Shown piece after piece: positions 20,100-36,753 of a stretch of DNA of 44,873 nt. The position numbers and the translations under genes were made by a program. Within the stretch, counting starts at the first letter, position 1; each line of letters begins with the position of its first letter. Below the pieces are notes generated by a model. It had not been told where the DNA came from. It saw nothing but the letters and a program-made list of their open reading frames with translations, and did no database searches. Origin of the DNA: a virus; the IMG/VR virus record IMGVR_UViG_3300028030_000022, positions 1 to 44,873 of that record; one strand, given 5' to 3'.

Positions 20100-20487
20100 C
20101 TACATAGGAATTCCTTTTAAGAATCGTGGGGATAGTGTTACAGGGACTGACTGCTACGGCTTAGTACGTTTAGTATATAAAGAGAAATTAGGTATTACAT
20201 TACATAAAGCAACGTCTAGTGCTTTCGCTTCACGTAACATTGAGACAGAGTTCTTAGCGGAAACGTCTAGTAGTTGGTTAAAGGTTCCTGAATTAGAGCC
20301 GTTTGACGTTATCGCTATGGCACACGATTCACGACACCCAGAGGTAATTCAACACTTTGGTATTTACCTTGGTGATGGGAAGATGCTACATACCTTAAAG
20401 CAGATAGGTTCACATATCGTTAAGATTGACGAGTACAAACATTACATAAAAGGATACTACAGATATGGCAAGGCTACTAACATATAA
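20092..20487 (+). CDS. tail tip NlpC/P60 peptidase, lambda gpK-like, 131 aa
   Basis: The start is a TTG at 20092 with GAGGA upstream, overlapping the L-like gene by eight bases. Cys21 in GTDCYGLVRLVY is the catalytic Cys of NlpC/P60 peptidases; His88 in IQHFGIYLGDG and His100 in KMLHT complete the expected triad region. Lambda gpK has an additional N-terminal Mov34-like domain that is missing here, so this is the peptidase half only. It would cut peptidoglycan cross-links during tip assembly or DNA entry. Confidence 0.85.
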   Translation: MYNYIGIPFKNRGDSVTGTDCYGLVRLVYKEKLGITLHKATSSAFASRNIETEFLAETSSSWLKVPELEPFDVIAMAHDSRHPEVIQHFGIYLGDGKMLHTLKQIGSHIVKIDEYKHYIKGYYRYGKATNI

Positions 20488-23400
20488 CAACATTTTAGAC
20501 CCGCTAAACAGAACTACAAAAGAAGTATCTGCCCGCACGTCTGTAGAACTCCTAGAGCAGCTAGATATTGATACTGAGCTGTATGAGGTAACTATCGCAC
20601 GTAACCAAGTTATTCAGACGGAGCCGTTTGACATTGGTGAAACAGATATTATAGCGATCTCTTTGACTCCGCTCGGAGGGGATAGCGAAGGTACGAAAGG
20701 AGTTATCACAGCAGTCGCTATGATAGCAGTTGTAGTTGCGGCTCCTTATATGTCTGGCGCTATCCTCGGAGGTATGGTTAACGGTGGGCTGATGTCTGCT
20801 AGTTTTGCTGGTACGTATGGCGCACTTATGGATAGTGCTTTACAGATTGGTATTATGTACGCTGGTGGTAACTTAGTTAATACGCTAGTTGGAAAGCCTC
20901 CACAGAGTTTTGACACAGACCTTTTGAATAACTTAAACGATAGTCCAACGTATTCTTGGAACGTACTGACTAACCAGATTAAAGAGGGTGACCCTGTCCC
21001 TGTTATTTATGGGAAAATGAGAGTCGCTCCACCACAGGTATCGCAGTATATTGAAACAGTTGACGATAAGCAGTACTTAAATATCCTTTATGCAGTTGCT
21101 GATGGAGAAACTGATATTGACACGTCAACAATAGAGATTAACGGGTCACCTTTAAGTAACTATTCTGACGTAGGTATTTATACACGCCCAGGTACGAATA
21201 AACAAAGTATCATTGGGATATTTGATGACGTAACATCAGACGCTCCTGTTAACCGACTAATTAATGATGATGCTGAAACTTGGGTCTACGCACAAACTAC
21301 AGGTAATACAGTTAGTGGTTTAAGTGTTGGACTCGTGGCGCCTAATGGTATTTGGGCCATAGATGGGAGCGGTAACCTTGTTAACAACACTGTAAAAGTA
21401 CAGGTAGAGTATGAGTACGAAGGTCAGTGGATCCCGTTAGGACGTACCACAGTTATTGATGAAGATAACGTAAAGGGTTACTGGGTAAAAGTTGGCCGTA
21501 AAACATACTTAAAGTTTACCGATATTAATGACGCTATGTGGTGTGTTTGGTACGGTACAAGTAAGTGGTCTGATGTCTTCTACGACGATATTACACTAGG
21601 TAATGGACTAACAGAGATAGCAGAGAGGCTACCTCAAAATTGTGTACCTCACCATGAGAAGAAGTACTTTGACGAGTACGCTAGCGTACATAAACCTCGG
21701 TACGCCGATTGGTATACAGAGTGTGGTACAATGATTGTAGATTACGCTACAATTACTTCAAATGAACGTTCAGCGCTTCGTAAGTCATTCTCTGTAAAGG
21801 GTCTTCCAGCAGGGCAATATAACACACGCGTAAAGTTCTTAGAAGTTCCCCCAAGTGGTTCGTTGTACAGTAGTATATTAACGTATGAGTACTTACAAGA
21901 AACTATTACAGATGACTTTACATATCCTAATACGGCATTACTAGGGGTCAGGATTTTAGCAACGGACCAACTTAGTGGTTCAGCACCTCGTATAACGGTT
22001 GTTGCAAGTAACGACATAAGCAATCCGTCTGACGTTTGTATTGATATCCTAGAACGAAGCGGTCAAACATTATCTACAACTGAGCTCCAACAATTCTCTG
22101 AATGGGGAGACTACTGTAACGCTGAAGGGTACACGTGTAACTTATACGTAGATAAACACTACACAGTACGCCAAGTACTTAATATGGTCGGAACCCTTGG
22201 ACGAGGAAATGTTTTACAGTTTGGTAGTAAGTGGGGTGTAGTAATTGATAAACCTAACCTCTTACCTGTTCAAGGTTTTCTTTTCACTATGGGTAATATC
22301 GCAAAGGACAGCTTTACTGAAAGCTTTTTACCTTTGCAAGACAGAGCAAATAAGTTAAGTATTACCTACTATGACGAGACCGTTAATTGGGCTCCTCAAA
22401 TCTTAGAAGTTTCATCTGAGTCTTACGAGACCTCACAACAGCTTAACGAGACTGCCATAAATTACGTCGGGTGTACGAATAAAGATATGGCTGTACGATA
22501 CGCTAAGTATACGCTTAATAGTAACCGTTACTTAACAATTACACAATCGTTTGAAGTTGATACCGAGGCTGTTGTATGTAGAGTTGGCGATATTGTAAAA
22601 GTGGCACATGACGTTCCTGGTATTGGGACAAGTGGTAGGATTGTTACTGCTGGAAACGGTACGGTAACTCTAGACCGTGAAGTAGAGATGGAAGCTGATA
22701 AACGGTACTTTATAGAAGTGCGTTACAGTGACACCGATGAAATCTTAGCTCTAGAGGTAGAGTACGCTAGAGGTACTACTGATACATTAACGCTACTCGA
22801 TATTCCTAGTGAGTACCCTACAAAGTATGACGTTTACTCTTTTGGTGAAGTAGATCTAGTAACGAAATTAATGCGTATTGTAACGATTACACAAACAATG
22901 GATCAACGAAGTAAGATTACTTGTATTGAGTACGTTGACTCAGTGTATGATGACTCACATGAAGTTCAACCTGAGAGCCTATCAAAGTTTAATATCACAG
23001 GATTATCTCTATCAGAGGACATCACGTACTCTGGAAGCACTGTAGTGTCTGCGATTAAAGCTTCTTGGCGTGGTTCAGCGTTATCTTATAAAGTCTACGT
23101 AGATGGTGACTTATATACAACGAGCCATGACTCAAGAGTAACAATCACAAATGTTAATGCTCCTGCAACTTACAACGTACGTGTTGAGGATACTTTTGGG
23201 AATGAGCAAGAAGCAAGTATTACGCTACTTGGCAGGTTTGCTCCACCTGAACCTCCAACGAACTTTACAGTCAAACAGTATGGGGACATATTACGTTTCC
23301 GTTGGGTGAAATCTATATCTAAAGATACTATAAAGTACGAGATACGTTCAGGTGTAACGTGGGACTCTGGATTCCAGCTTGGAACGGTTGGTAATGTTGA

Positions 23401-24283
23401 GACGTTCGAGTGGTCTCCTGATATGAATGAAACGTATCGCTTTATGATTAAGGCTATCGATGCCTCTGGTGTTACTTCAGAAGAGGACACATACGTTTAC
23501 TTTACAGTTACTGATATAGATAACTACAAGAACTTAATATACACGTATGACGGTCTTGACGTTGATACTCCTCCATGTGGTGTTACGACAGGACTATGGT
23601 TTATTCCAGGAAAAGGCTACGTGCCGTTTAGCTCAGTAACTTATGACGACCTTCAAGCTAGTGGCACAACGTATGACGATATACAAGGTTGGCATTACGC
23701 TGAAGAATCTACATTTGAAAGCTGCTCGATAGATACGTTTAAAGTAGGTGTAACTAAAATTAGAATGTTTGCTAAATACACAACTTTAGCTGTTGGTGCG
23801 ACGTATCAAACGTACCCTGACAGGACATATACGAGCTACCCAACGGCAACTTACCAGGAAATTCCAGCAGAAGCAGGGTTGCGCTTTTATTATGCTATCA
23901 GTGATGACGATATCACATATAGTACATGGACAGAGTACCTTGGGCTAGTGGATGAAAGCTTTAGATACATCAAGTTTAAGTACACGTTTGTAGGGGTTAA
24001 GGCCCATACAATCAGTACAATAAACGACTTTAAAGCGTTACTTGACGTTCCAGATATAGACCATACGTTGAACAATAGGTTAATAACGAATAGTGAAACG
24101 ATATCGTTTAGTGACTTAGGTCTATACTTTTACCAACCGCCACTCATATCACCAGTCAGTAAAGATAGTGGTATTATGGCAACGATAAAAGACATCACAA
24201 CAAGTGGCTTTACGATTGAGTCTTACGATACGTCTGTAGCACTTACAACAGGAACCTTTGACATTAGAATTCAAGGGTATTAA
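20465..24283 (+). CDS. tail tip host-specificity protein, fused gpI/gpJ-like, 1272 aa
   Basis: Residues 1-145 resemble lambda gpI: a short polar start, then hydrophobic stretches (ITAVAMIAVVVAAPYM at 81-96 and MSGAILGGMVNGGL near 96-109). From about 155 the J-type core begins with SPTYSWNVLTNQIKEGDPVP followed by VIYGKMRV. Two fibronectin-III-like domains lie near 840-1010 (SYKVYVDGDLYTTS and PPEPPTNFTVKQYG ... YRFMIKAIDASGVTSEE). The C-terminal 260 residues are probably the exposed receptor-proximal part. In lambda I and J are separate genes; here one frame covers both. It overlaps the NlpC gene by 23 bases. Confidence 0.88.
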   Translation: MARLLTYNNILDPLNRTTKEVSARTSVELLEQLDIDTELYEVTIARNQVIQTEPFDIGETDIIAISLTPLGGDSEGTKGVITAVAMIAVVVAAPYMSGAILGGMVNGGLMSASFAGTYGALMDSALQIGIMYAGGNLVNTLVGKPPQSFDTDLLNNLNDSPTYSWNVLTNQIKEGDPVPVIYGKMRVAPPQVSQYIETVDDKQYLNILYAVADGETDIDTSTIEINGSPLSNYSDVGIYTRPGTNKQSIIGIFDDVTSDAPVNRLINDDAETWVYAQTTGNTVSGLSVGLVAPNGIWAIDGSGNLVNNTVKVQVEYEYEGQWIPLGRTTVIDEDNVKGYWVKVGRKTYLKFTDINDAMWCVWYGTSKWSDVFYDDITLGNGLTEIAERLPQNCVPHHEKKYFDEYASVHKPRYADWYTECGTMIVDYATITSNERSALRKSFSVKGLPAGQYNTRVKFLEVPPSGSLYSSILTYEYLQETITDDFTYPNTALLGVRILATDQLSGSAPRITVVASNDISNPSDVCIDILERSGQTLSTTELQQFSEWGDYCNAEGYTCNLYVDKHYTVRQVLNMVGTLGRGNVLQFGSKWGVVIDKPNLLPVQGFLFTMGNIAKDSFTESFLPLQDRANKLSITYYDETVNWAPQILEVSSESYETSQQLNETAINYVGCTNKDMAVRYAKYTLNSNRYLTITQSFEVDTEAVVCRVGDIVKVAHDVPGIGTSGRIVTAGNGTVTLDREVEMEADKRYFIEVRYSDTDEILALEVEYARGTTDTLTLLDIPSEYPTKYDVYSFGEVDLVTKLMRIVTITQTMDQRSKITCIEYVDSVYDDSHEVQPESLSKFNITGLSLSEDITYSGSTVVSAIKASWRGSALSYKVYVDGDLYTTSHDSRVTITNVNAPATYNVRVEDTFGNEQEASITLLGRFAPPEPPTNFTVKQYGDILRFRWVKSISKDTIKYEIRSGVTWDSGFQLGTVGNVETFEWSPDMNETYRFMIKAIDASGVTSEEDTYVYFTVTDIDNYKNLIYTYDGLDVDTPPCGVTTGLWFIPGKGYVPFSSVTYDDLQASGTTYDDIQGWHYAEESTFESCSIDTFKVGVTKIRMFAKYTTLAVGATYQTYPDRTYTSYPTATYQEIPAEAGLRFYYAISDDDITYSTWTEYLGLVDESFRYIKFKYTFVGVKAHTISTINDFKALLDVPDIDHTLNNRLITNSETISFSDLGLYFYQPPLISPVSKDSGIMATIKDITTSGFTIESYDTSVALTTGTFDIRIQGY

Positions 24284-24307: not shown

Positions 24308-24523
24308 ATGATTACAATTACAAGAGGTGTGGAGGAAGCTTTCACACCAACAACAGATACACTTTTATGTGCGAATAAGGTTGGTGTTATTCAATACCAA
24401 ACAGATAACACTGAACCTGAGTGGGGCATCCTCCGTAAAGGGGAGAAGTTAAACGTCCCTGCTGGAGTTACGATGTACTTTAAAGCAGCACAAGACACAA
24501 CGTTAGCTGAAATAAAGTTATAA
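24308..24523 (+). CDS. hypothetical tail-region protein, 71 aa
   Basis: GAGGA precedes the ATG by eight bases. The protein is beta-rich (ITITRGVEEAFTPTT; VGVIQYQTDN; LNVPAGVTMYFKAAQDTT) and reads like a single small beta-sandwich, similar in feel to small adaptor or tip-capping proteins. It follows the J-like gene and precedes the fibre region. I do not recognise the family. Confidence 0.65.
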   Translation: MITITRGVEEAFTPTTDTLLCANKVGVIQYQTDNTEPEWGILRKGEKLNVPAGVTMYFKAAQDTTLAEIKL

Positions 24524-24526
24524 GTT

Positions 24527-24892
24527 ATGCTTAAGCTTTGGGGGTTAGTCCCGCCAGAAGGGGCTTTAGAACTTAGCGAGTTTAGCTTATTGCAGTCCGT
24601 TCTGCATGGGTCTAACGACCAGCTTGGCTTTGGGCGTTACTACTATAATGAGTACGGTTTATTCTACGTAGATGAGAATGGAAACCGCTTACAGAACGGT
24701 AAAATATGTGTTCAAGGCTCGTGGGCAAAAGTATATACAACGATTACTGAGGATACGTGGACTGATGAGAATGGTGTTGCATACACTAATGAGGAAATCT
24801 TAGCGTTGCCTGACACATGTTTCCTAGACGCTGTGTTTGATTCAAATGGTCGTCTAGTAGTAGATATTAATAATAATGAAGGAGTGGTTTAA
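24527..24892 (+). CDS. hypothetical tail-region protein, 121 aa
   Basis: It starts four bases after the previous gene with only a weak ribosome site, and its stop overlaps the tailspike start by one base, so the three genes are probably translated together. The protein begins MLKLWGLVPPEGALELSEFS and contains a repeated D/N-E-N-G turn pattern (FYVDENGNRLQNG, WTDENGVAYTNEE) typical of beta-rich phage proteins. It could attach the following tailspike. Function not established. Confidence 0.65.
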   Translation: MLKLWGLVPPEGALELSEFSLLQSVLHGSNDQLGFGRYYYNEYGLFYVDENGNRLQNGKICVQGSWAKVYTTITEDTWTDENGVAYTNEEILALPDTCFLDAVFDSNGRLVVDINNNEGVV

Positions 24893-26673
24893 TGCCATTA
24901 TTTACAACAAAAGAGAGACAAAGTTACGAGAAGGTATTAAACCAATACTCACCAGCTCTTGAAGCGAACATTTCAACGAAGACACTAGAGCTATTCAAAC
25001 GTGCTTACGCAATGGATAAGTATAATACACCTTGGGAGAAAGCGTTTAGCGATTATGGTGCAACACAGGATGATGGATGGAGCAACAGCGAACATTTAAT
25101 TACTGGGACAAAGTATTACTTTAGTTCAAGTACTGGTAATGACAATAATGATGGACTAACTCCTGCGACAGCTAAGAAGACTGTAATTGCAGCATTAACA
25201 ATTCTTAGGGATAGTCCAGCAGGTACTGGTGTATTGTTTAAACGTGGAGATATCTGGGATGCTTCAAATGGGTTTGAAAACTATACAGGATACTCAAAAG
25301 ATGCTATTGGTACAGTCGATAACCCGATGGTAATAAGCTGTTGGGGTGTGGGGAACTTACCTAAGTTTACGAGTCTTGCACCAGCAGCTCTGACATGGAC
25401 TGATAATGGGGATGGGACATGGTATTCAGAAGATATGTACGCTCCAAATAATAAAATTTCTGGGTTGATGCTAAATGGTATATGGGGAATAGCTTCAAGT
25501 ACCCTATCTGGCCTCTTAACAGAAGATGGCGCAAAATGGTATCATGACTCAGGAGCAGGTAGATTGTATGTTAATACTGACCCTGTAGCTTTCATTGATA
25601 TACAGTTTGCACAGCATCTTAGCTGGTTTAGATTTGCAGCGAACACTAGAAGTCTTAATATTTCTTATCTTGAAATAGGGCACAATAGAGACTCGAATAT
25701 TCAGCTACAATACTCAACTATCAGTAACGTATCTATTCATAACTGTACTTTGGGTGAAAAGTCTAACAGGTCGGTTATATATTCTGGGGTAAATTTTAGC
25801 TTTTATAATAATATTATGAATGCTAAAGAACCTGATAGTAGCAGATACCATGCAACATCCCATACTTGTTACGGCTTCGAGGGTCTCTATGTAGTTATTC
25901 CAGATGATGCCGTTGGAAATATATCAATTATAAATAATACTTTCAAAGATTTTAAACATGCAAATATCTTGGTAACTAAAGCAGATGGACTAAAAGTAGA
26001 AGACAATATAGCAATAAATATTACTAAAAATATTTTAACAATGGCTGATTGGCTAGATTATGGTGGTTCATACTCTATAGAAGCTCTTGTTAATAATGTA
26101 TCTTTTAATAATAACTTACTCTATAAAGTTAAAAATGTGCAACTAACTGGTACTACAACAGTAGAGTACAACATTTTCTATAAAACTAAAGACTCTGACT
26201 TAGACACTAAGTCTGGTGGAAATATTGGGTACGCTATTCAAAATAACCAAAGGACAGACCAACCATATAGTCCAAGCATCGCAAATAATGTAATGTTCAA
26301 ATGTGATAGTGGGGGTGTCATGATACAAAGTAACTTCAACGGTGTAATGGATGGGATGATAACAGAGAAGAATATTATGTTTATGAATGGACAAAGAACT
26401 ATGCATCCAACAGCAACTACGAACAAGGGTGTACAATTTATGTTATTTGCACTTGACTCTAGATACACATACCAACCTATTAATACAATAACTAGAGATA
26501 ATGTTATGTTCTCCGAATACACCGATAAAGTCATTTACTACGGCAGGGGTGATGAACAAACAAATAATGAGAACTATTTGAGTATAGAAGAAGCACAAAG
26601 TAAAACATACAGTGATGGTACAGTTTTTGAACGAAACGTTAACGTTGACTTAGCAGAGCTAGTGGAAGTTTAA
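24892..26673 (+). CDS. beta-helix tailspike protein 1, 593 aa
   Basis: Residues about 75-105 have YYFSSSTGNDNNDGLTPATA, the usual entry motif of right-handed parallel beta-helix proteins in phage spikes and polysaccharide lyases. The following 400 residues carry short periodic strands rich in Asn (NISYLEIGHNRDSN; SNVSIHNCTLG; ISIINNTFKDFK; GLKVEDNIAINITKN), as in a beta-helix stack. Such spikes bind and often degrade host surface glycans. The N-terminal 20 residues (MPLFTTKERQSYEKVLNQYS) resemble those of the 130-aa protein at 27009, suggesting a shared attachment peptide. Composition becomes more AT-rich after about 25600. Confidence 0.8.
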   Translation: MPLFTTKERQSYEKVLNQYSPALEANISTKTLELFKRAYAMDKYNTPWEKAFSDYGATQDDGWSNSEHLITGTKYYFSSSTGNDNNDGLTPATAKKTVIAALTILRDSPAGTGVLFKRGDIWDASNGFENYTGYSKDAIGTVDNPMVISCWGVGNLPKFTSLAPAALTWTDNGDGTWYSEDMYAPNNKISGLMLNGIWGIASSTLSGLLTEDGAKWYHDSGAGRLYVNTDPVAFIDIQFAQHLSWFRFAANTRSLNISYLEIGHNRDSNIQLQYSTISNVSIHNCTLGEKSNRSVIYSGVNFSFYNNIMNAKEPDSSRYHATSHTCYGFEGLYVVIPDDAVGNISIINNTFKDFKHANILVTKADGLKVEDNIAINITKNILTMADWLDYGGSYSIEALVNNVSFNNNLLYKVKNVQLTGTTTVEYNIFYKTKDSDLDTKSGGNIGYAIQNNQRTDQPYSPSIANNVMFKCDSGGVMIQSNFNGVMDGMITEKNIMFMNGQRTMHPTATTNKGVQFMLFALDSRYTYQPINTITRDNVMFSEYTDKVIYYGRGDEQTNNENYLSIEEAQSKTYSDGTVFERNVNVDLAELVEV

Positions 26674-26744
26674 CGGTACTTTCGACCAGAACTTCTAAAA
26701 CAAGCCACACGACACCTGAATACCAACCAGTAAAGGAACTCTAA

Positions 26745-26987
26745 ATGAAACGCACAAAGGAACAACAAACCGAACTCGTAGCGAAATTTGAACGCGACGT
26801 TAAGAGTTATCCACGTTGGTACAGGCTACTCTTAGCGACCGATCAATGGCTCGGTGTACTATTGTTCAACACTTCGCAAGACGAGACAATCTCAAGCTAC
26901 ATCGGACGCACAGGTAAGCATAAATGGCTGTGCTACCTATTACGAAAACTTCAAGCTAGGCACTGTTTGCGTAGTCTAGGTGAATAA
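26745..26987 (+). CDS. small protein with SQDET/GRTGKHKWL/HC motifs (intact copy), 80 aa
   Basis: AAGGA precedes the ATG. The protein is basic, with a hydrophobic-aromatic middle (RWYRLLLATDQWLGVLLF) followed by NTSQDETISSYIGRTGKHKW and ARHCLRSLGE at the end. From memory, small phage proteins with a DQ..N..(G)..DET.S...GR....HC pattern occur near lysis genes, but I cannot name a function. A second copy lies at 30778-31156. Each copy follows a beta-helix tailspike gene. It might be a membrane-associated lysis accessory or a spike-linked factor. Confidence 0.72.
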   Translation: MKRTKEQQTELVAKFERDVKSYPRWYRLLLATDQWLGVLLFNTSQDETISSYIGRTGKHKWLCYLLRKLQARHCLRSLGE

Positions 26988-27008
26988 CTTAATTTATAAA
27001 GGAAAAAT

Positions 27009-27401
27009 ATGCCAGTAATTACAACAACAGAAAAGCAAGCGTATGCCGAGGTTGCAGGAAAGTCAAAAGAGATTGTCACTGACGTTACTGGTGCAAATGT
27101 GTTTGTACAAAAAGCAACAACAAACAAACATTATTTATCCCCTAGAATGCCACTACCAAATTCACCGACAACTAACACAAATATAGGGACAACTGTAACT
27201 TCTTATGATATCGGCACGACTGCAACTTGGGACGGGTACAAATGGATATATACAACTAATTATGGATGTACTACATCAAATAGACCATCATTAACTGTAA
27301 ACAACTTTGACAAGTATTCACAAGTATTCGGTACAACACTCGGAAAACCAATTTGGTGGAATGGATCTGACTGGGTTGCTGCTACTGGTGCAGTAGTGTA
27401 A
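27009..27401 (+). CDS. small tail-fibre-like protein, 130 aa
   Basis: The N-terminus (MPVITTTEKQAYAEVAGKSK) is similar to that of tailspike 1, and the C-terminus ends GKPIWWNGSDWVAATGAVV, a signature seen at the ends of many phage fibre or spike proteins (GKPIWWNG..W.DA.G). The middle is Thr/Asn-rich and beta-like. The ribosome site is AAAGGA. It could be a stripped-down spike, consisting of an attachment peptide and a tip domain, or the remnant of a longer one. Confidence 0.7.
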   Translation: MPVITTTEKQAYAEVAGKSKEIVTDVTGANVFVQKATTNKHYLSPRMPLPNSPTTNTNIGTTVTSYDIGTTATWDGYKWIYTTNYGCTTSNRPSLTVNNFDKYSQVFGTTLGKPIWWNGSDWVAATGAVV

Positions 27402-27416
27402 TGGAAACCTAACGAC

Positions 27417-28013
27417 ATGACAGACGATACACAAAAGAATCTCATTCAACGCCACGATAAGCGGTTGGATGAGCACGATAACACAATACGAACTTTAGTC
27501 GCCTCCGTTGAACAGCTCGTCGAAACACAAGCTGTTACCAACCAGAGGCTCGAAGAAATCTCAAGGTTTCTTTCTAAGCAAGCTGTTTTCAGTACCCGCT
27601 TAGACGACTTAGATAGAAACTTGTCTGAGTCATTTAAACGAGTACACGAACGAATTGATAAGCTTGAAAATACGCAAGACTCTGAAGTTGGTTGTAACAG
27701 CGTTAGACTCCTCAACAGGGACTTAACACATCTTACAGAGGACATTGATAGACTCGTCAATAGTGTTTCCACAATGGCGGGTAAAGTAGATACACTTGAA
27801 GAGCACCAAAGAAGCTTCTTATCTCCTAGCACAATAAAATGGATAGCAGGATTTATTATAGTTTACATTATAGGGTTCGGAAGCTACACCGCTGGAAGTA
27901 TAAATAGTATTAATAGTACAATGACAAAGCATACAGTTCTACTTGACACAAATTCAAAAGAACTTACAAGGTTTGAGCACTGGCTCGGCTTTATGCAGCA
28001 CGATAAGAAGTAA
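27417..28013 (+). CDS. coiled-coil protein with one membrane segment, 198 aa
   Basis: Residues 1-135 are a charged coiled coil with heptad-like repeats (QRHDKRLDEHDNTIRTLV, LDDLDRNLSESFKRVHERID). Residues 140-158 form one transmembrane helix (IKWIAGFIIVYIIGFGSYT), leaving a short C-terminal tail with further helix. The gene sits directly before the holin candidate, 10 bp apart. A lysis-accessory or membrane-anchoring role is likely from position. It is not an Rz-type spanin, because the membrane segment is near the C-terminus and spanins lie at 31157-31724. Confidence 0.65.
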   Translation: MTDDTQKNLIQRHDKRLDEHDNTIRTLVASVEQLVETQAVTNQRLEEISRFLSKQAVFSTRLDDLDRNLSESFKRVHERIDKLENTQDSEVGCNSVRLLNRDLTHLTEDIDRLVNSVSTMAGKVDTLEEHQRSFLSPSTIKWIAGFIIVYIIGFGSYTAGSINSINSTMTKHTVLLDTNSKELTRFEHWLGFMQHDKK

Positions 28014-28023
28014 GGAAACACTT

Positions 28024-28218
28024 ATGAATGAAAAAGAAAAGAGCCGTCAAAGGTTATTGTGGTTTAGCTTCTGGTTTATAGTTGCTGTTACACTAATGGC
28101 TTTCGGAAGCGTTTGGCTTGGTATGAACATAGATGGAATCAACGGTATAGTTGGGACTACAATAGGTGCGTTGAGCTTACTTGGGATAGGTAACTTAGCA
28201 ACGAAGCCTGGAAAATAA
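28024..28218 (+). CDS. holin candidate, two membrane segments, 64 aa
   Basis: The start is the ATG at 28024 because AAGGAAACACTT precedes it; the longer frame reaching back to 27943 has no ribosome site and overlaps the upstream gene. There is a short charged N-terminus (MNEKEKSRQR), TM1 at 11-33 (LLWFSFWFIVAVTLMAFGSV) and TM2 at 40-58 (GIVGTTIGALSLLGIGNLA), then a short basic tail. This is the size and layout of class II holins, which open the inner membrane to release the endolysin. Other small membrane proteins cannot be ruled out. Confidence 0.72.
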   Translation: MNEKEKSRQRLLWFSFWFIVAVTLMAFGSVWLGMNIDGINGIVGTTIGALSLLGIGNLATKPGK

Positions 28219-28228
28219 AGGAATAAAT

Positions 28229-30544
28229 ATGAGTACAAAGATGTTAGAGAGTACGTGGGACGAAGTTGACGCAGCAACTATTAATGCTAAGATTGTAAGT
28301 TCTGAAGCGGAGTTAATGGCTCTTGGAACGGATGGTAAGACGAAGCCAAAGCGTGTGTTCTGGGATGACGAATTAAGGGGTGGTTCATTTACACTTTCAG
28401 AGAATCCTGAAGCGGATGATGGTGGTATATGGTTTAACGGGTATAGAAGAGATTTTAGTGGGGATGTACTTACTAAGTGGTTTGGTGTAGATGATTTAAG
28501 CATAAAGAAGTGTCACGACTATGCAAATTCTAATAATTTAAAAGTGTTTGCATCTGGAGATATACTGCTTACTGGAACTTCCGTTGTAAATATTGAGACA
28601 GATTGTGACTACAGTAATGCAAATATAGTTGTTGATGGGTGGTCAGGAAACTTTAAAATTACCGGAAATACTGTAACAGAGTATATTTCAGGAGATGCGA
28701 TATTTGACAAGTTACAAGCATCGGCTACTATAAGTAAAAATAGTAGCTACATAGACACTTTATCTGATGAGCCTAGTCTGAAAAATAGCTATATTCAGGT
28801 TGAAACAAATACACCAATATATACATATAGGGGAGCGAATGTAAACTATACAGAGTATAACTTAATTACAAACAAGGGTCTTTTAATAAAACCTTTAATT
28901 ATGGATTTGACAAATGTATCAAAATTAAGAGTCTTAAAAAGCAGCGGAAGAATATTGAAGATTAAAGGTTTTAGTATATCTGAAAAAAATCTCAGCTCAC
29001 TGCTTGGAGGAATATTATTTGACATACAAAGAAATGACACCATAGTCGAAAGTACCTATTTTGAAAGAGACGACAACTTCGCACTATTCAATGGTGACAG
29101 AATACGAGTTAGTAATGCGTATAATGTAAAAATTGAAGATGTAATTGGGCTTCCAATAGACAACAGTGATGCTTCATATGGGTATTTAACAAGATTTGAT
29201 TCAAGCATGAAGGTCACAGTAGAAGGTGCATTTTGTGACGGAATTGGATGGGGTGCTACTGGTAACAGACAAAATAGAGACATCACGTTTATGGATTCAA
29301 GTTTATCAAGGATTGATTTTCACGAAGTTCTATATGAGAGGCTTCTTGTAGAAAATTGTTCAATAGGTGCTGCTGCAATAACACTATCTTGCATAGGTGA
29401 TGTGGTTGCAAATAATAATAGACTGGTATTAAGACAGCAAGATATTACAGGAGGAAGAAGCCTATTTATATCAACAAGAAATGACTGCGGAGGAGGTTTT
29501 ATGGATGGAAACCTATATGTAAATGGTCTTAGCGTTATTGGTAAAGACACTACATTGACTTCAGCTGATTTCACTTACGATAAATTCTTTTTAGTTTACG
29601 CAGATGGAACAAACCAATATTCAGATGTAATACTTGATAAAAACCTAATCAACAATGTAAGGTTCAATTCTATATTCGCTGAAAATATTAAGATAGACGA
29701 TAGTACTATTGGAATGTATCCTTTTCTATATGCAGCTGATGGAGTCGACACATATAAGGCTCCATTAAATATATCAATACTTAACTCAAATGTGAACATG
29801 TTTACTCTAAAGATGTCATATTTTGAATTGCCCAATTACTCAGTTTCTGACACGTCAATATATGAGAACACTGATTTTAATATGTCGCTAATACTTGATA
29901 ACGTATCAACTGACAACGTAATAATTAGTGGGAACAGAACGGATGTAGGTCTTGTGACAAAGATAACACTAAATAACGCTAAACCAACTGTTTTTAAAAT
30001 AGGTCAAAATGGAAAATGTGATATTGAAAACACAGTATTGAGTTGCCTTGAAACAACTGTAAATAATGGATACATAAGAATTGGTATTGGAGGAATGTCG
30101 AAAATTATTCCATCGGCTGCTTATGACTTAAATGACGACACAACACATGGAATATATTTGATAAATACTGGAAGACACATAGTTTCAATATCAAACTCAA
30201 TGACAGAAATTATTGATAGGACGCACGAGATAGGTGTAGCATCGTGTAAAATATCTTGTTGCCAAATAAGAAAAGGATACGACAGCAATTATGCAATACC
30301 TATAAGTAGCACAGATGGTTCTTCAGTAATAGATGTCCCTTTAGTTATTGGAAACACCTACCAAATAACAAGCGGATACAGCGGTGATTCATCTAACTTC
30401 TGCGTTAGCTACATGCACATGAGAACTTCTGATTTAAATAAAGTTGCTACAAGTTCAGGGTACATTGTGTTTTCTCCTGATTCTAGTGATTTAAATATAT
30501 CAACAGCTAGTGATGATTTTCGAAATATAAAACTAATACCGTAG
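28229..30544 (+). CDS. beta-helix tailspike protein 2, 771 aa, chimeric composition
   Basis: The N-terminal 90 residues contain DDGGIWFNGYRRDFSGDVLT then KWFGV, the typical spike entry motif before a pectate-lyase-like beta-helix. The rest shows many short strands (ANIVVDGWSGNFKITGN; VLKSSGRILKIKGFSISE; ISILNSNVNMFTL), as in a large right-handed beta-helix, and a beta-rich C-terminus. From about codon 90 (28500) AGA and ATA codons and AT content rise sharply relative to the neighbours, which suggests that the receptor-binding part was acquired by exchange. It lies between the holin candidate and a small membrane protein. Confidence 0.8.
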   Translation: MSTKMLESTWDEVDAATINAKIVSSEAELMALGTDGKTKPKRVFWDDELRGGSFTLSENPEADDGGIWFNGYRRDFSGDVLTKWFGVDDLSIKKCHDYANSNNLKVFASGDILLTGTSVVNIETDCDYSNANIVVDGWSGNFKITGNTVTEYISGDAIFDKLQASATISKNSSYIDTLSDEPSLKNSYIQVETNTPIYTYRGANVNYTEYNLITNKGLLIKPLIMDLTNVSKLRVLKSSGRILKIKGFSISEKNLSSLLGGILFDIQRNDTIVESTYFERDDNFALFNGDRIRVSNAYNVKIEDVIGLPIDNSDASYGYLTRFDSSMKVTVEGAFCDGIGWGATGNRQNRDITFMDSSLSRIDFHEVLYERLLVENCSIGAAAITLSCIGDVVANNNRLVLRQQDITGGRSLFISTRNDCGGGFMDGNLYVNGLSVIGKDTTLTSADFTYDKFFLVYADGTNQYSDVILDKNLINNVRFNSIFAENIKIDDSTIGMYPFLYAADGVDTYKAPLNISILNSNVNMFTLKMSYFELPNYSVSDTSIYENTDFNMSLILDNVSTDNVIISGNRTDVGLVTKITLNNAKPTVFKIGQNGKCDIENTVLSCLETTVNNGYIRIGIGGMSKIIPSAAYDLNDDTTHGIYLINTGRHIVSISNSMTEIIDRTHEIGVASCKISCCQIRKGYDSNYAIPISSTDGSSVIDVPLVIGNTYQITSGYSGDSSNFCVSYMHMRTSDLNKVATSSGYIVFSPDSSDLNISTASDDFRNIKLIP

Positions 30545-30565
30545 CGCATTGGTTATAAAATACAA

Positions 30566-30739
30566 ATGTTAAAAATGGAAACAACAACACAAGAATTAAT
30601 CTACCAAGATAATAGCTTGGTAGTAGGATTATCTGGCTCAATAGTATTACTTGCAATTAAAAAGTATATAGAAGACAAGGAGATTCAAACTCTCCTTAAT
30701 AGAGCTGTATTATATGTGGAACAAAAAGGCAAAGAGTAG
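30566..30739 (+). CDS. small single-membrane-segment protein, 57 aa
   Basis: This frame runs from ATG 30566 (or the in-frame ATG at 30575) to TAG 30739. It encodes a polar start, one hydrophobic helix (SLVVGLSGSIVLLAI), a basic stop-transfer stretch (KKYIEDKE) and an amphipathic helix (IQTLLNRAVLYVEQKG). The ribosome site is weak, so confidence is limited. It fills an otherwise empty gap after tailspike 2 and could be a second holin-like or lysis-related protein. AT-rich codon use matches the preceding spike, consistent with joint transfer. Confidence 0.5.
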   Translation: MLKMETTTQELIYQDNSLVVGLSGSIVLLAIKKYIEDKEIQTLLNRAVLYVEQKGKE

Positions 30740-30777
30740 CCAAAAGTAATTCAAAATATATCGATGGTAAGATTAAG

Positions 30778-31156
30778 ATGCAGTATGCTAAATACTTCAT
30801 TAACCAAATAGACCCATTAGTAGTTAAGAAATATGGAAGTAAGTTTGAACCTATCATTGAAGCTAAAGTGGTAGAGACATTTGGTACAAACCTAAATAAG
30901 TATAAAGAATATACTTGTGAGCAGAACAGTAAAAACTTAGATGAACTATATGCTAAGTTTGAAAGAGATGCGAAAAAAGGGAGTAGATGGATGAGACTTT
31001 ATTAGTCTTATACCAACTGCTAAATGTAGTATGGTTAAATGGCTCACAAGATGAGACGGTTTCCAGCCATATAGGTCGTACTGGAAAACATAAGTGGTTA
31101 CGTAATATCTTAAAAAGATACAGAGTAGCCATTGCTTCAAGAGTAGAGGAGAGTAG
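30778..31156 (+). pseudogene. second copy of the SQDET/HC protein, broken by two one-base shifts
   Basis: Frame 1 (30778-31005) encodes an N-terminal extension of about 55 residues and then YAKFERDAKKGSRWMRL, aligning with VAKFERDVKSYPRWYRL of the intact copy at 26745. Adding one T to the T run at 30998-31000 continues the match through NGSQDETVSSHIGRTGKHKW. Adding one A to the A run at 31112-31116 continues it to HCFKSRGE and TAG 31154-31156, against HCLRSLGE in the intact copy. The repaired stop directly abuts the spanin ATG at 31157. As it stands, a 71-aa frame (30987-31202) reads the middle only. It is either a real pseudogene or carries two homopolymer sequencing errors. Confidence 0.75.
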
Positions 31157-31534
31157 ATGCCAAGTGTTACTAAAGATGGTATTATTGCCACGATCACGAT
31201 AGCCTTCATTGTTGGGCTGTACGTTTATATCCACACCTTAACGACCCGTAACAAGACCTTAGAAAGCAACTTACTTCGTGCTAAGGTTGAGCTCACACAA
31301 GCACAGTCAGCAGCACGTCAGTGTAAGGCTGCTGTTATCACACAGAATAACGCTATATTTAAGGTACAACAAGAGCGTGATACTGCGCTCAACGAACTCA
31401 GTAAGTGGAAGAAAAGACCACCAAAAGTTAAGTATAAGGTTATCCATAAAATTATAAAGGTAAAATCAAATGACTGCAAACAGATTAAAGATACTCTCAA
31501 CGCTGTACGTAACATTAATCCTGATGACCTTTAG
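31157..31534 (+). CDS. Rz: inner-membrane spanin, Rz-like, 125 aa
   Basis: One N-terminal transmembrane helix (residues 8-26, GIIATITIAFIVGLYVYIH) is followed by a periplasmic coiled coil (LESNLLRAKVELTQAQSAAR and QQERDTALNELSKW) and a Lys-rich linker. Cys residues at about 56 and 108 could form disulfides between subunits. GAGGAG precedes the ATG. The outer-membrane partner gene starts inside this gene in the +1 frame. Spanins join inner and outer membranes and fuse them in the last step of lysis, which implies a Gram-negative host. Confidence 0.87.
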   Translation: MPSVTKDGIIATITIAFIVGLYVYIHTLTTRNKTLESNLLRAKVELTQAQSAARQCKAAVITQNNAIFKVQQERDTALNELSKWKKRPPKVKYKVIHKIIKVKSNDCKQIKDTLNAVRNINPDDL

Positions 31535-31774: not shown

Positions 31775-33802
31775 ATGAGCCAAGCGTTTCATGTTTTAAC
31801 AACAACTAACACTGTATATGACGATGTTGCTAGACATAACGATAACTACGCAGCGTTAAAAAGTTCGTTTAGCGGGACATCGTTTCCAGCAAGCCCAATG
31901 GTAGGTCAAGAGTGTTGGAGAACAGACCGTGGAACAACTACTGCAAACGGTACAACAGGTAAGAAGTACACGTACACTGGGGACACCTCGCTTGGCGATG
32001 GCGGTTGGGTTGATAGTGAAGCTACTGGCTTCGTACAAGATGAAGTAGTTCGTGCTAGAGGGACAAAGCTGACGTTAGACGAAAGGCTTGACGTATCTCT
32101 AAACGAAGATGGAACACTCCGCCCATTAGCTAATATGGGGTCTGAATGGGTGCTGCCTGATGTTACCTTTACAAAAGTAACTAGTACATCATTTACCACG
32201 TCAGGCAACACGTCAGACATTTATCTAGCAGAACGACGTGTGAAAGTAAATAGTGACTCAGTAGGTTTTACAGAAGTCGTTAGTAGTTCGTATGACGGTG
32301 CTACTACAACAGTGGTGTTAAAAGATGCTATTATCGGGAACTCTTTAGTGTCTGTTGAACACTCTATTATCAGCCCGTTTAAAGATTCGTCTGGCGGAGC
32401 GTTAAGCTACTACTCACAAGACTACATTAACAGTAGCTTCCAAAGCAAGAACTCTAGTGGTGACATCATTGTTGCTCGTCACGCGTACGTTGATGGAAAT
32501 GTTAGAACAGACCAAATTACGAACCGTACAGGAACTCAATTAGTATTAAATGCTGGGGAGTCTCAAGGTAAAGTCGCTGGGCAAACGTATGAAAAGGTTT
32601 ATCTCAATGCTGAAGGTGGGCTAGAAGTCAGTAATCCCGATAGCGCGCACGGTAACTGGAATAGTGGGTATACAGTAGAACGTGCTACATTGAAGGGTCG
32701 TTCACTAGACTTCAACGGGGAAGCTAGGATAGACGTTGAAAGTATCAATAAAGGTTTGCTCTATAAAGGGGATATCCCTGATGCAATAGACTTAAACGTT
32801 TATGTGGCTCCAGGTATCTACCACCAAAATTCTTCTGCGCAAGCTAGCAATGGTACCAACTACCCTGAAAACTTAGCAGGAATGTTACAGGTTACTGGTG
32901 ATGGAAGTATGGTGTACCAAGTGTACACTGTGTACGGGACGTATCGTAGAGTGTACCATAGAACGTACTATAACGGTACTTGGTACGGCTGGAAACTTTT
33001 AATGAACTACGGGGACACAGCGTATAACTCTGATAGGTTAGGTTCTGTAGGTGCAAGCAACTTCGCTAGAAGCGACATAGATGATACACTTACTGGCTCT
33101 TACCTATGGTCGGCTGGGGCGTATCACGGCCTATACTGGGGAGAAATCCATAAGGATGCTGACGCGCATAGTGGTGGTTGGTCCTATATAAGAAGTGGGG
33201 CAGCTGGTGTGGGATCACTCGAAATAGGCTCTGATGACAAGCTCCAAATATACGAGACAGACGGGCACGTTTTAGCTATTGATATAAGCACTAATAACAA
33301 AACGTTAGACGCTAAAGGAGGATTACTTGAAGCAGGGGTTAAGCTAGCGGATAAGTACCTAGGTATCGCAGATAAAGCGTCCGATTCAGATAAGCTTGAT
33401 GGGTACAACTCAAGTCAGGCATCTACTGCGAACACGGTAGCAGTACGTAACGCCTCTGGTGATATTAACGCTAGGCTATTCCGCAGTGAATATGATAATA
33501 CTAATAGCACTATTGGCTTTATTATGACACAAGTTAACACTGATAGTGATAACTACATACGGCCAAGCACACCATCGCAACTTGTTGCAGGACTCCCAGC
33601 GGCAGATCTACTTGGTAAAATAAAGCTTATTGATGGTCATGGTAGCGGGCTAGACTCCGATACAGTAGATGGGCTCCACGGAGCTGATATTGCGAAGACT
33701 ACGCAAACCAGCTCAACGGATACCATCTACACTGATGCTACAACAGGTGTAAACTACAAGTTGTACATTGATAACGGTGCGCTAGTGCTTGAAGAACTTT
33801 AA
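31775..33802 (+). CDS. tail fibre protein A with pyocin-knob-like domain, 675 aa
   Basis: The first 230 residues form an attachment region shared with fibre B (HNDNYAALKSSFSGTSFP; LDERLDVSLNEDGTL; YYSQDYINS). Residues about 333-410 resemble a pyocin-knob domain (DLNVYVAPGIYHQNS ... TYYNGTWYGWKLL). Then come repeated fibre motifs (SDKLDGYNSSQASTANTVAV and RNASGDINARLFRSEY; LDSDTVDGLHGADI). The final YKLYIDNGALVLEEL matches the end of fibre B (YKMYIENTKLLIEEL). The ribosome site AAAAGGAGATTTA is the same before both genes. It probably mediates host binding. Confidence 0.85.
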   Translation: MSQAFHVLTTTNTVYDDVARHNDNYAALKSSFSGTSFPASPMVGQECWRTDRGTTTANGTTGKKYTYTGDTSLGDGGWVDSEATGFVQDEVVRARGTKLTLDERLDVSLNEDGTLRPLANMGSEWVLPDVTFTKVTSTSFTTSGNTSDIYLAERRVKVNSDSVGFTEVVSSSYDGATTTVVLKDAIIGNSLVSVEHSIISPFKDSSGGALSYYSQDYINSSFQSKNSSGDIIVARHAYVDGNVRTDQITNRTGTQLVLNAGESQGKVAGQTYEKVYLNAEGGLEVSNPDSAHGNWNSGYTVERATLKGRSLDFNGEARIDVESINKGLLYKGDIPDAIDLNVYVAPGIYHQNSSAQASNGTNYPENLAGMLQVTGDGSMVYQVYTVYGTYRRVYHRTYYNGTWYGWKLLMNYGDTAYNSDRLGSVGASNFARSDIDDTLTGSYLWSAGAYHGLYWGEIHKDADAHSGGWSYIRSGAAGVGSLEIGSDDKLQIYETDGHVLAIDISTNNKTLDAKGGLLEAGVKLADKYLGIADKASDSDKLDGYNSSQASTANTVAVRNASGDINARLFRSEYDNTNSTIGFIMTQVNTDSDNYIRPSTPSQLVAGLPAADLLGKIKLIDGHGSGLDSDTVDGLHGADIAKTTQTSSTDTIYTDATTGVNYKLYIDNGALVLEEL

Positions 33803-33813
33803 AAGGAGATTTA

Positions 33814-34929
33814 ATGAGTCAAACGTTTCACACATTATTTGAGACAAATAGGATGCTCGACGATGTTGCTAGGCATAATGATAACTACGCAGCGTTAAAA
33901 AGTTCGTTTAGCGGGACGTCATTCCCACCTTCTCCAACAACAGGGCAGACCTGTTGGAGGATTGATAAAGGGACACAGACAGCGACAGGCTTTACAGGGA
34001 AGCTCTACAAGTTTTCAGGAGACACCTCTTTAGGCCTTGCTGGATGGGTCACTGATGAAGAGACGTCAAGCGTTACTAAAGAAGTAATCAACTCACGTGG
34101 TTCAAAGTTAACACTAGACCAACGTTTAGATATTTCCCTCAACGAAGATGGAACTTTAAAAGCTACGGCTAGTCAGTACTCAAGTGAGTGGTCTTTATCA
34201 GCTGTTACGTTTACGTACATCGACAGTAAAACGTTTAAAACCTCTGGCAACACGACTGACATATTCCTACCTACAAGAAAAGTGAAGGTGAACGTTACAG
34301 GTTCGTATAGCCTATCTGAGGTCGTATCGTCTAGCTATAACAGTACAGCGGATACAACAACAGTCAACGTAAAAGACGCTATTGTGACTACGTCTTTAGT
34401 CTCTGTAAATCACGGTATCATTAGTCCAAATGGCTCCTTAAGCTACTACACAAAGGAAGTGCTAGACGAACGCCATCAGTACATCACAATGAAAGTAAAA
34501 CTTCTTGAGAACGTTATTGCTGGAGACTTACTTGAAGTTACTTCTTATGGTAGCTACCCAGAAGTTTCGAAGTACTCTGGAGGAAACGTTGTAGGTATTT
34601 GTACAGTGTCTAGTAGTACGGGAGATATTACGGATATCATTACGCGAGGTGTCGTATCAGTTACTGTTGTAGGCAACGTGGGGGATGAGGTGTTTAGTGA
34701 TGGTGTTTCAAGTGCTACGACAACACGCCCAACAGTCGCTTATCAATCGTTAGGCTTTATTTTAGGGAGCAACTCTTTACTATTTAGCCCATCAGAAGTT
34801 AAAACGGAATTTCGTAAAGCTGAAAAGGCTCAGGATGTAAACACTGGGACTACATATAAAGACAGCGTAACAGGAAAATTATACAAGATGTATATTGAAA
34901 ACACAAAACTACTTATAGAGGAGTTGTAG
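33814..34929 (+). CDS. tail fibre protein B, paralog of fibre A, 371 aa
   Basis: The N-terminal about 230 residues align with fibre A (HNDNYAALKSSFSGTSFP is identical; LDQRLDISLNEDGTL; YYTKEVLDE). A 38-bp stretch is identical in DNA between the two genes (31841-31878 and 33880-33917). The middle then differs: a beta-rich segment (MKVKLLENVIAGDLLEVTSY; GDITDIITRGVVSVTVVGNV) resembling DUF2190-type or fibre beta barrels. The last 25 residues again match fibre A. It starts 12 bp after fibre A with the same ribosome site. The pair arose by duplication with replacement of the central domain. Confidence 0.82.
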   Translation: MSQTFHTLFETNRMLDDVARHNDNYAALKSSFSGTSFPPSPTTGQTCWRIDKGTQTATGFTGKLYKFSGDTSLGLAGWVTDEETSSVTKEVINSRGSKLTLDQRLDISLNEDGTLKATASQYSSEWSLSAVTFTYIDSKTFKTSGNTTDIFLPTRKVKVNVTGSYSLSEVVSSSYNSTADTTTVNVKDAIVTTSLVSVNHGIISPNGSLSYYTKEVLDERHQYITMKVKLLENVIAGDLLEVTSYGSYPEVSKYSGGNVVGICTVSSSTGDITDIITRGVVSVTVVGNVGDEVFSDGVSSATTTRPTVAYQSLGFILGSNSLLFSPSEVKTEFRKAEKAQDVNTGTTYKDSVTGKLYKMYIENTKLLIEEL

Positions 34930-35695: not shown

Positions 35696-36220
35696 ATGAG
35701 ATATGCACATTATGAAGATATAACAGGGAAACTATTAGGCTGGTATGACGACGCTATTAATGCCGTAGTACCTACACCTAACCTACAGATAACGGAGGAC
35801 GTCACGGTTGAGCCTAACGCGAACTTTGTTGACGTGGATAACAATCAAGTTATCCTAAAAGACTTACGTACGCTTTACGAAGTCAAAGCGGATAAACATA
35901 CAGAGATTAAAAATACGTTTAATAAAAAGCTTAGCGCAGGGTTTACGTGCTCTAACGGCATCACTATGGATGCGATAATAGATAAGGTACAACTTCTTAA
36001 AAACGGGTATGACTTAAGCGTGAAACTAGGATTAACAACGATGGGTATCCGTGACTTTTACAATACTGTCCACCCTGGGACTGCAACTACAGACGTAGCT
36101 ACAATGATTGACGAGCTTGGTGTTAACTACCAAACGATGCTCAGTACAAAGTGGTCTTATGATGACGCTATAGATGCCTGTACAACAATCACTGACGTAC
36201 TTGCTATAAGTTGGTTATAG
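35696..36220 (+). CDS. fibre-associated protein, DUF4376-like, 174 aa
   Basis: The N-terminus (RYAHYEDITGKLLGWYDDAI) and the later segment NKKLSAGFTCSNGITMDAII then DKVQLLKNGYDLS resemble phage proteins with a DUF4376-type domain, often found just after tail-fibre genes and thought to be assembly or accessory proteins. The ribosome site is AAAAAGGAAAAAT. The stop overlaps the endolysin start. Assignment is from pattern memory; moderate confidence. Confidence 0.65.
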   Translation: MRYAHYEDITGKLLGWYDDAINAVVPTPNLQITEDVTVEPNANFVDVDNNQVILKDLRTLYEVKADKHTEIKNTFNKKLSAGFTCSNGITMDAIIDKVQLLKNGYDLSVKLGLTTMGIRDFYNTVHPGTATTDVATMIDELGVNYQTMLSTKWSYDDAIDACTTITDVLAISWL

Positions 36221-36753
36221 TGGATGCGTTTCACGAAGGGTTGGAAGAGCTCCTAAAGTATGAAGGTGGCTACTCCAAAGACCCTAGAGACTCTGGAGGA
36301 GAAACCTTTAAAGGAATCTCTAGAAGGTATTTCCCAAAATGGGAAGGTTGGTCTATCATTGACGTTAATCATTTCGACCCACGTCTGGATGACCTAGTTG
36401 CACAGTTCTATAAACAACAATTCTGGGACAAATTACTCCTTGATGAAGTTAGTAATGGAGAGGTTGCTAAGATACTATTCAACTTTAGTGTTAATATAGG
36501 CAAAAAGCAAATTACTAAAAAAGTTCAACGAATTCTTCACGTAACTATTGATGGATCCTTCGGACCACAAACCTTAAATGCGCTTAATGAGTTCTGTACA
36601 AGTAACAGTAATGAGTTTGTGTATCACCTACTTCTAGAGGTAGTTGAACTGTACGTCCAAATTGTAAATAAGAATAGAACTCAAAAGGTCTTTTTGCTTG
36701 GTTGGTTGAACCGTGTTATAAGAACCTATTACTCCTTCGAACGGACTGTTTAG
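36220..36753 (+). CDS. endolysin, GH108-type muramidase with peptidoglycan-binding domain, 177 aa
   Basis: Start is uncertain: the GTG at 36220 overlaps the upstream stop (TAGTG), while the TTG at 36211 would add three residues; neither has a clear ribosome site. The N-terminal domain has LLKYEGGYSKDPRDSGGETF then KGISRRYFP, the signature of glycosyl hydrolase family 108, with the Glu of EGGY catalytic. The C-terminal domain with VTIDGSFGPQTLNALN is a peptidoglycan-binding fold. No signal peptide is seen, so it needs the holin. It is 8 kb from the holin candidate and 4.5 kb from the spanins, with fibre genes between. The stop overlaps the convergent gene's stop. Confidence 0.88.
   Translation: MDAFHEGLEELLKYEGGYSKDPRDSGGETFKGISRRYFPKWEGWSIIDVNHFDPRLDDLVAQFYKQQFWDKLLLDEVSNGEVAKILFNFSVNIGKKQITKKVQRILHVTIDGSFGPQTLNALNEFCTSNSNEFVYHLLLEVVELYVQIVNKNRTQKVFLLGWLNRVIRTYYSFERTV

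What the first reader, a model, noticed from the sequence alone, without database searches (positions are those of the whole stretch)
24892..31156. Duplicated module: beta-helix spike followed by the SQDET/GRTGKHKWL/HC protein
Each of the two tailspike genes is followed by a copy of the same small protein (26745-26987; 30778-31156), and the second group differs in base composition. This looks like a mobile spike cassette whose small protein travels with the spike or serves it. I know no described link between the two.
Basis: partly seen in the sequence, partly recalled or inferred. Interest (0 to 1): 0.65.

Follow-up and report, generated by a model that had tools for sequence, protein, structure and literature searches.

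The report
Shuffled spike and lysis genes, one pseudogene
Two unrelated tail-spike genes in this phage each sit near a copy of a small, widespread phage protein of unknown function, but the second copy is broken, the copies come from different lineages, and the protein also occurs in phages without such spikes or any tail, so this is ordinary gene shuffling at the boundary of receptor-binding and lysis genes, not a spike with a dedicated partner.

Summary
Both SQDET/GRTGKHKWL sequences exist, but they are not a duplicated spike-plus-partner module. Copy 1 (26745-26987, 80 aa) is intact. Copy 2 (30778-31156) is a pseudogene: its three parts match the family profile in order in three reading frames. 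The spikes show no detectable homology to each other, and each small-gene copy is closer to genes of other phages than to the other copy.

The protein is a distant member of PHROG 3342 (unknown function). Relatives usually follow a tail-fibre gene and its chaperone-type gene, and precede lysis genes or, in P2/Mu-like phages, the tail sheath. They also occur beside a spanin, amidases and, in a tail-less phage, an M15 hydrolase. Six phages with relatives of spike 2 lack it. It is therefore not a spike partner; a late lysis- or membrane-associated accessory is my best but weak guess.

The mobile-spike half has support: spikes share an N-terminal adaptor, are AT-rich, and in two related phages the spike is followed by a 50-70 nt relic of a gene found downstream here. 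The conserved C-terminal Gly-Glu codons often form the next gene's ribosome-binding site, which could explain why the dead copy's 3' end persists before Rz.

The parts
24308..24523 (+). 71-aa small protein upstream of spike 1; homologues in L005 and L041 lie between the small protein and the next structural or spike gene
   Evidence: phmmer E 5e-9 to L005 8237-8470 and 2e-3 to L041 6273-6515
24892..26673 (+). Spike 1 (593 aa), putative beta-helix spike; no detectable relative in the collections used
   Evidence: ORF; no match in PHROGs, Pfam, PDB, phages, viral contigs; GC 36.0%
26745..26987 (+). Small protein copy 1, intact, 80 aa, phrog_3342-related; own Shine-Dalgarno AAAGGA before the ATG
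   Evidence: phrog_3342 E 4e-5; sequence; GC 44.9%
27009..27401 (+). 130-aa virion-structural-type protein; its first 30 nt resemble the start of spike 1 (80%)
   Evidence: phrog_20787 E 2e-7; repeat D7
27417..28013 (+). 198-aa coiled-coil plus membrane-segment protein, XhlA-like, lysis-cassette neighbour in related phages
   Evidence: phrog_1193 E 2e-5; PF10779 E 2e-3, below its cut-off; homologues next to holin/endolysin genes in L001, L014, L015, L017, L032, L042
28024..28218 (+). 64-aa protein with two hydrophobic segments, putative holin; strongly conserved in L001
   Evidence: phmmer E 9e-34 to L001 145-339; no named family; holin role inferred
28229..30544 (+). Spike 2 (771 aa), tail spike; N-terminal adaptor shared with the L001 and L041 spikes
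   Evidence: PDB 8x8m E 5e-12; 182 phage records; phmmer L001 5e-24, L041 9e-12
30566..30739 (+). 57-aa ORF of unknown nature between spike 2 and copy 2
   Evidence: ORF; no match
30778..31156 (+). Small protein copy 2: pseudogene, family match split over three frames (about 30940-31002, 30987-31111 and 31112-31156); 3' end AGAGGAGAGTAG abuts the Rz start and supplies its Shine-Dalgarno
   Evidence: three-frame profile search; nearest L005, 87% over 39 columns; 3' sequence
31157..31534 (+). Rz-like inner spanin
   Evidence: phrog_739 E 5e-3; homologues in L001 and L017
31470..31724 (+). Rz1-like lipoprotein overlapping Rz (lipobox-like FSGCC), inferred outer spanin
   Evidence: nested ORF position and signal/lipobox; DNA match to L001 and L017; no PHROG match
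36211..36753 (+). Endolysin, after the fibre genes and their DUF4376-like gene 35696-36220
   Evidence: phrog_315 endolysin E 3e-33

Best explanation
This is mosaic late-gene architecture, not a duplicated spike-plus-partner cassette. In this phage, receptor-binding genes (two spikes, several fibres) and lysis genes (XhlA-like protein, putative holin, Rz/Rz1, endolysin) are interleaved. Receptor-binding segments are exchanged by recombination whose 3' joint often falls in the first tens of bases of the next gene. The small protein is one of those next genes: a PHROG 3342 relative that normally occupies the slot between the fibre and its chaperone-type gene on one side and the lysis genes, or the tail sheath in P2/Mu-like phages, on the other. 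The window holds two copies from different lineages; the one beside spike 2 decayed through frameshifts, while its 3' end may persist because it contains the ribosome-binding site of Rz. Shown: copies, decay, different ancestry, contexts, relics, ribosome-binding-site overlap. Inferred: the order of events. Function, most likely and only inferred (about 45%): a late accessory protein acting at the membrane or in lysis, not a spike chaperone.
For: Copy 2 split over three frames. Copy 2 groups with L005/L041 and copy 1 with L032 (moderate support). Spikes not homologous. Relatives in 41 viral loci, phages and genomes. Typical context is fibre, chaperone-type gene, small gene, then lysis genes or sheath. 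Lysis-only or tail-less contexts: L027, L060, L065, L075 (phage YY is a membrane-containing Vinavirales phage, and the M15 enzyme of its relative Jorvik digests cell wall, PMC10589892). Spike-2 relatives lack the small gene: 0/6, control 25/26. Relics after spike genes in L001 and L041; fibre-swap joint inside the small gene in Mannheimia phages. Last Gly codon is GGA in 19 of 31 members ending in GE, against 61 of 307 Gly codons in window genes (Fisher p 3e-6).
Against: Most relatives do sit next to receptor-binding genes, and in the P2/Mu-like group no lysis gene is adjacent, so a lysis role is not compelled. Two relatives (L073 Vibrio VpaJT_1, L074 Vibrio VnaP) sit beside neither. The predicted fold (five helices, pLDDT 79, pTM 0.52) matches no solved structure. 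The tree has few columns (64) and many unresolved forks. The two frameshifts lie in short homopolymers, so an assembly error cannot be excluded without reads, although the long genes around are intact.
Confidence: 0.78

Rival explanations
1. Spike partner: the small protein is a chaperone or attachment factor for tail spikes or fibres and moves with them.
For: Most relatives lie within two genes downstream of a fibre-type gene and its chaperone-type gene, often with overlapping or near-overlapping reading frames. In P2/Mu-like phages only the fibre side is constant.
Against: Present in a tail-less phage beside its M15 hydrolase and in lysis-only contexts. Absent from six whole phages with relatives of spike 2. 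Follows unrelated fibre types. Copy 2 is dead while spike 2 is intact. Small gene 1 differs from spike 1 in composition.
Confidence: 0.1
2. Accessory 'moron'-type gene: a host-takeover or superinfection-exclusion protein that uses accessory-gene slots in late operons.
For: In P2-like phages it lies between G and FI, the slot where P2 carries Z/Fun, listed as phage exclusion (PMC3091744 table; Mannheimia 587AP1). Next to integrase or at the genome edge in Pmp1 and Aaphi23, and next to a putative O-antigen deacetylase and integrase in PBR31. Apparently dispensable: relics or pseudogenes in the window, L001, L049 and Mannheimia phiMhaA1. Some members carry an N-terminal hydrophobic segment.
Against: Usually embedded in an operon, with frames overlapping the upstream gene and its stop region serving as ribosome-binding site of the next gene, rather than independently transcribed. 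Also present in T7-like Caulobacter phages between fibre and pinholin. No similarity to a known exclusion protein was found; the PADLOC library was not searched.
Confidence: 0.3
3. True in-genome duplication of a spike+protein unit followed by divergence.
For: Same order (spike, then small gene) occurs twice in about 6.3 kb.
Against: Spikes have no detectable homology. Copies are closer to other phages' copies. No long direct repeat between the two groups.
Confidence: 0.03
4. Copy 2 is expressed through programmed frameshifting, or its frameshifts are assembly errors.
For: Both shifts are -1 and lie in short T and A runs; all three parts keep family similarity.
Against: Two shifts are needed, neither site is a canonical slippery heptamer by inspection, another relative (L049) is also broken at different places, and intact relatives need no shift.
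Confidence: 0.12

Closest known systems
PHROG 3342 (phage protein family, unknown function)
   Same: Both copies and the relatives scanned match it; shared motif of a hydrophobic helix ending in DQ..N, then G..DETIS, then a C-terminal helix with HC
   Different: Window copies are distant members (24 and 20 bits) of a mainly environmental branch with an N-terminal KFE.D extension and a C-terminal SxGE
Late-gene slot between tail-fibre assembly gene G and sheath gene FI of P2-like phages (Z/fun site)
   Same: In Mannheimia 587AP1, and in comparable positions before a sheath gene in AcaML1 and several viral contigs, the small gene occupies this slot
   Different: Similarity to P2 Z/Fun was not shown; in the window the gene lies between spike and structural/lysis genes
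Receptor-binding protein and endolysin mosaicism in phages (PMC10684548)
   Same: Exchange of receptor-binding segments and lysis genes
   Different: That work is about domains within proteins; the window shows whole spikes interleaved with lysis genes, and one decayed gene copy

Membership tests
PHROG 3342 | Profile match of the small protein | tested here: met
   E 4e-5 for copy 1, 1e-3 for copy 2 frame; relatives up to 5e-21
PHROG 3342 | Conserved D-E-T-[ILVF]-S core and C-terminal H-C | tested here: met
   Alignment A8 of 43 members: T48, S50, H73 invariant; D46, E47, C74 at least 90%
Duplicated spike+partner module | Both spikes homologous | tested here: not met
   No phmmer match between spike 1 and spike 2
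Duplicated spike+partner module | The two small genes are each other's nearest relatives | tested here: not met
   Copy 2 nearest L005 (87%), copy 1 pairs with L032; support moderate
Duplicated spike+partner module | Both copies coding | tested here: not met
   Copy 2 needs two frameshifts
Spike chaperone / spike-linked protein | Co-occurrence with the spike | tested here: not met
   0 of 6 phages with relatives of spike 2 carry it; present in tail-less phage YY
Spike chaperone / spike-linked protein | Spike folding depends on the protein | not testable with these tools
   Needs expression experiments
Lysis protein | Adjacent to holin, endolysin or spanin genes | tested here: inconclusive
   True for many loci and for tail-less YY, but not for the P2/Mu-like group, VpaJT_1 or VnaP
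Lysis protein | Membrane segment or known lysis fold | tested here: inconclusive
   Hydrophobic N-terminal segment only in some members (e.g. L009, L051); fold without PDB match
Beta-helix tail spike (spike 2) | Homology to a solved tail spike | tested here: met
   8x8m E 5e-12 over residues 109-444
Beta-helix tail spike (spike 1) | Homology to, or predicted fold of, a beta-helix spike | tested here: inconclusive
   No match; model pLDDT 31

The most novel reading that the evidence does not exclude
PHROG 3342 proteins are a widespread, uncharacterised class of late phage proteins shared by tailed and tail-less phages that act at the membrane (lysis timing or exclusion of competitors), whose gene by position marks the 3' edge of exchangeable receptor-binding segments and by its C-terminal codons doubles as the ribosome-binding site of the next gene.
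Probability: 0.25. Interest if true: 0.5.

Novelty: new member of a known kind. Interest (0 to 1): 0.28.

Why it matters
It corrects a tempting reading (spike plus dedicated partner). It also leaves a usable lead: a small gene of unknown function, found in very different phages including a tail-less one, that sits where receptor-binding segments are swapped. If its function were known, annotation of the fibre-lysis junction in many phages would improve. The relics give direct footprints of spike exchange.

Tried and rejected
- M15-endolysin relic at the N-terminus of the copy-2 ORF: looked similar by eye, but 4 of 500 shuffles scored higher, so not claimed.
- Duplication of the whole unit: no long direct repeats between the groups.
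- Relatives of spike 1: none in viral contigs, phages or PDB; single-sequence AlphaFold model unusable.
- Relatives of spike 2 in viral contigs by peptide pattern: none, though phage records hold many distant ones.
- Direct tblastn of copy 1 against phages: no match; relatives were reached only through intermediate sequences.
- Function from structure: the small-protein model matched no solved structure, and viral matches are unnamed.
- Other relics of the same kind: exact-pattern scans found only the known loci.
- Literature on PHROG 3342: none found.
- Promoter/terminator scan: terminator-like sites no more than in shuffles; promoter-like sites 41 against a mean of 27.7 (sd 5.9), not interpreted.
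Full report
OBSERVATION. The window is a 44,873-base IMG/VR virus record. Gene order in the region is: tail tip J-like protein (20465-24283, phrog_31, E 2e-116), 71-aa and 121-aa ORFs, spike 1 (24892-26673), small protein copy 1 (26745-26987), a 130-aa virion-structural-type protein, an XhlA-like protein, a putative holin, spike 2 (28229-30544), a 57-aa ORF, copy 2 (30778-31156), Rz-like and nested Rz1-like genes, two related fibres, a further fibre-type gene, a DUF4376-like gene and an endolysin. Both small sequences match phrog_3342, a family of unknown function.

COPY 2 IS A PSEUDOGENE. A profile built from 37 intact relatives, without window sequences, matches copy 2 in three frames in consecutive order: residues 4-24 in frame 0, 7-64 in frame 2, 58-82 in frame 1. 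The conserved ending ...HCFKSRGE* is in the third frame and stops at 31156, directly before the ATG of Rz. Intact relatives read through without a shift. Another locus, L049, is likewise broken, and L001 keeps only about the first 18-20 codons.

NOT A DUPLICATION. Spike 1 and spike 2 do not find each other. In a tree of 44 sequences, copy 2 groups with L005 and L041 (97/59; 87% identity to L005 over 39 columns) and copy 1 with L032 (88/87). Support is moderate because only 64 columns were available. Copy 1 is GC-rich (44.9%) beside an AT-rich spike 1 (36.0%), while copy 2 shares the low GC of its surroundings.

WHERE THE FAMILY OCCURS. Relatives were found in 41 viral loci, four genome contigs including a Sulfurovum genome, and phages of Flavobacterium, Acidithiobacillus, Vibrio, Xanthomonas, Synechococcus, Caulobacter, Mannheimia, Pasteurella, Aggregatibacter, Pseudoalteromonas, Ruegeria and the phage recorded as Marinomonas phage YY. 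By my reading of the gene lists (hand classification), a fibre-type gene, usually followed by a 110-200-aa chaperone-type gene, lies within two genes upstream in about two thirds of the roughly 50 non-redundant loci. Profile counts agree: fibre and tail families and DUF4376 are the commonest named families upstream. Downstream are holins, endolysins and, in six scanned loci, the tail sheath; AcaML1 and Mannheimia 587AP1 also have the sheath downstream. No pectate-lyase or beta-helix Pfam family appeared among the upstream neighbours, although Pfam also misses spike 1.

CONTEXTS THAT EXCLUDE A DEDICATED SPIKE PARTNER. The gene follows an amidase and precedes an Rz1-like gene in L027, follows a spanin in Xanthomonas PBR31, follows an amidase in Roseobacter DSS3P8, and follows the M15 hydrolase in Marinomonas phage YY. 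YY groups with Jorvik in the membrane-containing, tail-less Vinavirales, and Jorvik's M15 enzyme degrades cell wall (PMC10589892). Conversely, six whole phage genomes with relatives of spike 2 have no PHROG 3342 match, while the same search rings in 25 of 26 records chosen because they carry it or a relic of it. All but one of those 25 have a single match; Pasteurella CFP3 has a second partial one.

FOOTPRINTS OF EXCHANGE. Spike 2 shares an N-terminal stretch with the spikes of L001 and L041, which otherwise differ (DNA match of 125 nt, 75%, to L001). Directly after the L001 spike lies a 53-nt remnant (87%) of the start of the small gene. Directly after the L041 spike lies a 71-nt match (83%) covering the start of the XhlA-like gene, which in the window follows the 130-aa structural gene. 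In Mannheimia phages 587AP1 and phiMhaA1 the fibre and chaperone genes differ, and 95% homology resumes inside the small gene, at about codon 33. These are separate cases of a receptor-binding segment being exchanged with the joint in the 5' part of the next gene.

A SHARED STRETCH OF CODE. In 31 members ending in Gly-Glu, the Gly codon is GGA in 19, against 61 of 307 Gly codons in window genes (Fisher p 3e-6; the members are related, so the p value is optimistic). The next ATG often lies 0-4 nt after the stop, so GGAGAR can act as the Shine-Dalgarno of the next gene. Members whose next gene starts about 21-24 nt on with its own Shine-Dalgarno, including copy 1, use GGT. Copy 2 keeps AGAGGAGAGTAG before the Rz start, which offers a reason for its 3' end to persist (inferred).

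FUNCTION. The predicted structure is five short helices (mean pLDDT 79, pTM 0.52) with no solved counterpart. Some members have an added N-terminal hydrophobic segment; most have only a moderately hydrophobic helix. A late membrane- or lysis-associated accessory is my first choice (about 45%), an exclusion/host-takeover accessory second (about 30%; in P2-like phages the gene sits in the G-FI slot where P2 has Z/Fun, PMC3091744), and a spike/fibre partner is unlikely (about 10%). None of these is shown.

VERDICT. The arrangement is ordinary phage mosaicism with one decayed gene.

Noticed in passing
L014 3769-4401, L024 3348-4015, L039 80-775, L040 3809-4444: Four relatives of the small gene lie just downstream of a diversity-generating retroelement: reverse transcriptase plus template/variable repeats. 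In three, all mismatches fall on template adenines (9/9, 9/9, 13/13); in L039 15 of 26 do.
   Followed up: partly
L041 8332-8385: Relic of the first ~17 codons of the XhlA-like gene directly after the spike gene, 83% identical over 71 nt to window 27394-27464.
   Followed up: yes
L001 3551-3605: Relic of the first ~18-20 codons of the small gene between the spike and a portal-like protein gene.
   Followed up: yes
L072 3320-3480 (Mannheimia phiMhaA1-BAA410): Long run of tandem repeats (SKQA in one frame) directly before the truncated small gene, downstream of the variable tail fibre gene; looks like a phase-variation-type repeat.
   Followed up: no
window 31775-33802 and 33814-34929: Two fibre genes in tandem with related sequence and similar leader DNA (phmmer E 8e-79; repeats D1 and D3).
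   Followed up: no
window 24892-24921 and 27009-27038: Spike 1 and the 130-aa structural protein start with nearly the same 30 nt (80%), hinting at a shared leader or an N-terminal adaptor remnant.
   Followed up: no
L065 3492-3728 and L074 3501-3722: PHROG 3342 relatives are annotated as 'DNA helicase UvrD' in Marinomonas phage YY and 'tRNA pseudouridine synthase D' in Vibrio phage VnaP, implausible for proteins of 73-78 aa.
   Followed up: no
L054: A Sulfurovum (Campylobacterota) genome contig carries a close relative (81% to L006), suggesting a Campylobacterota host for this branch of phages.
   Followed up: no
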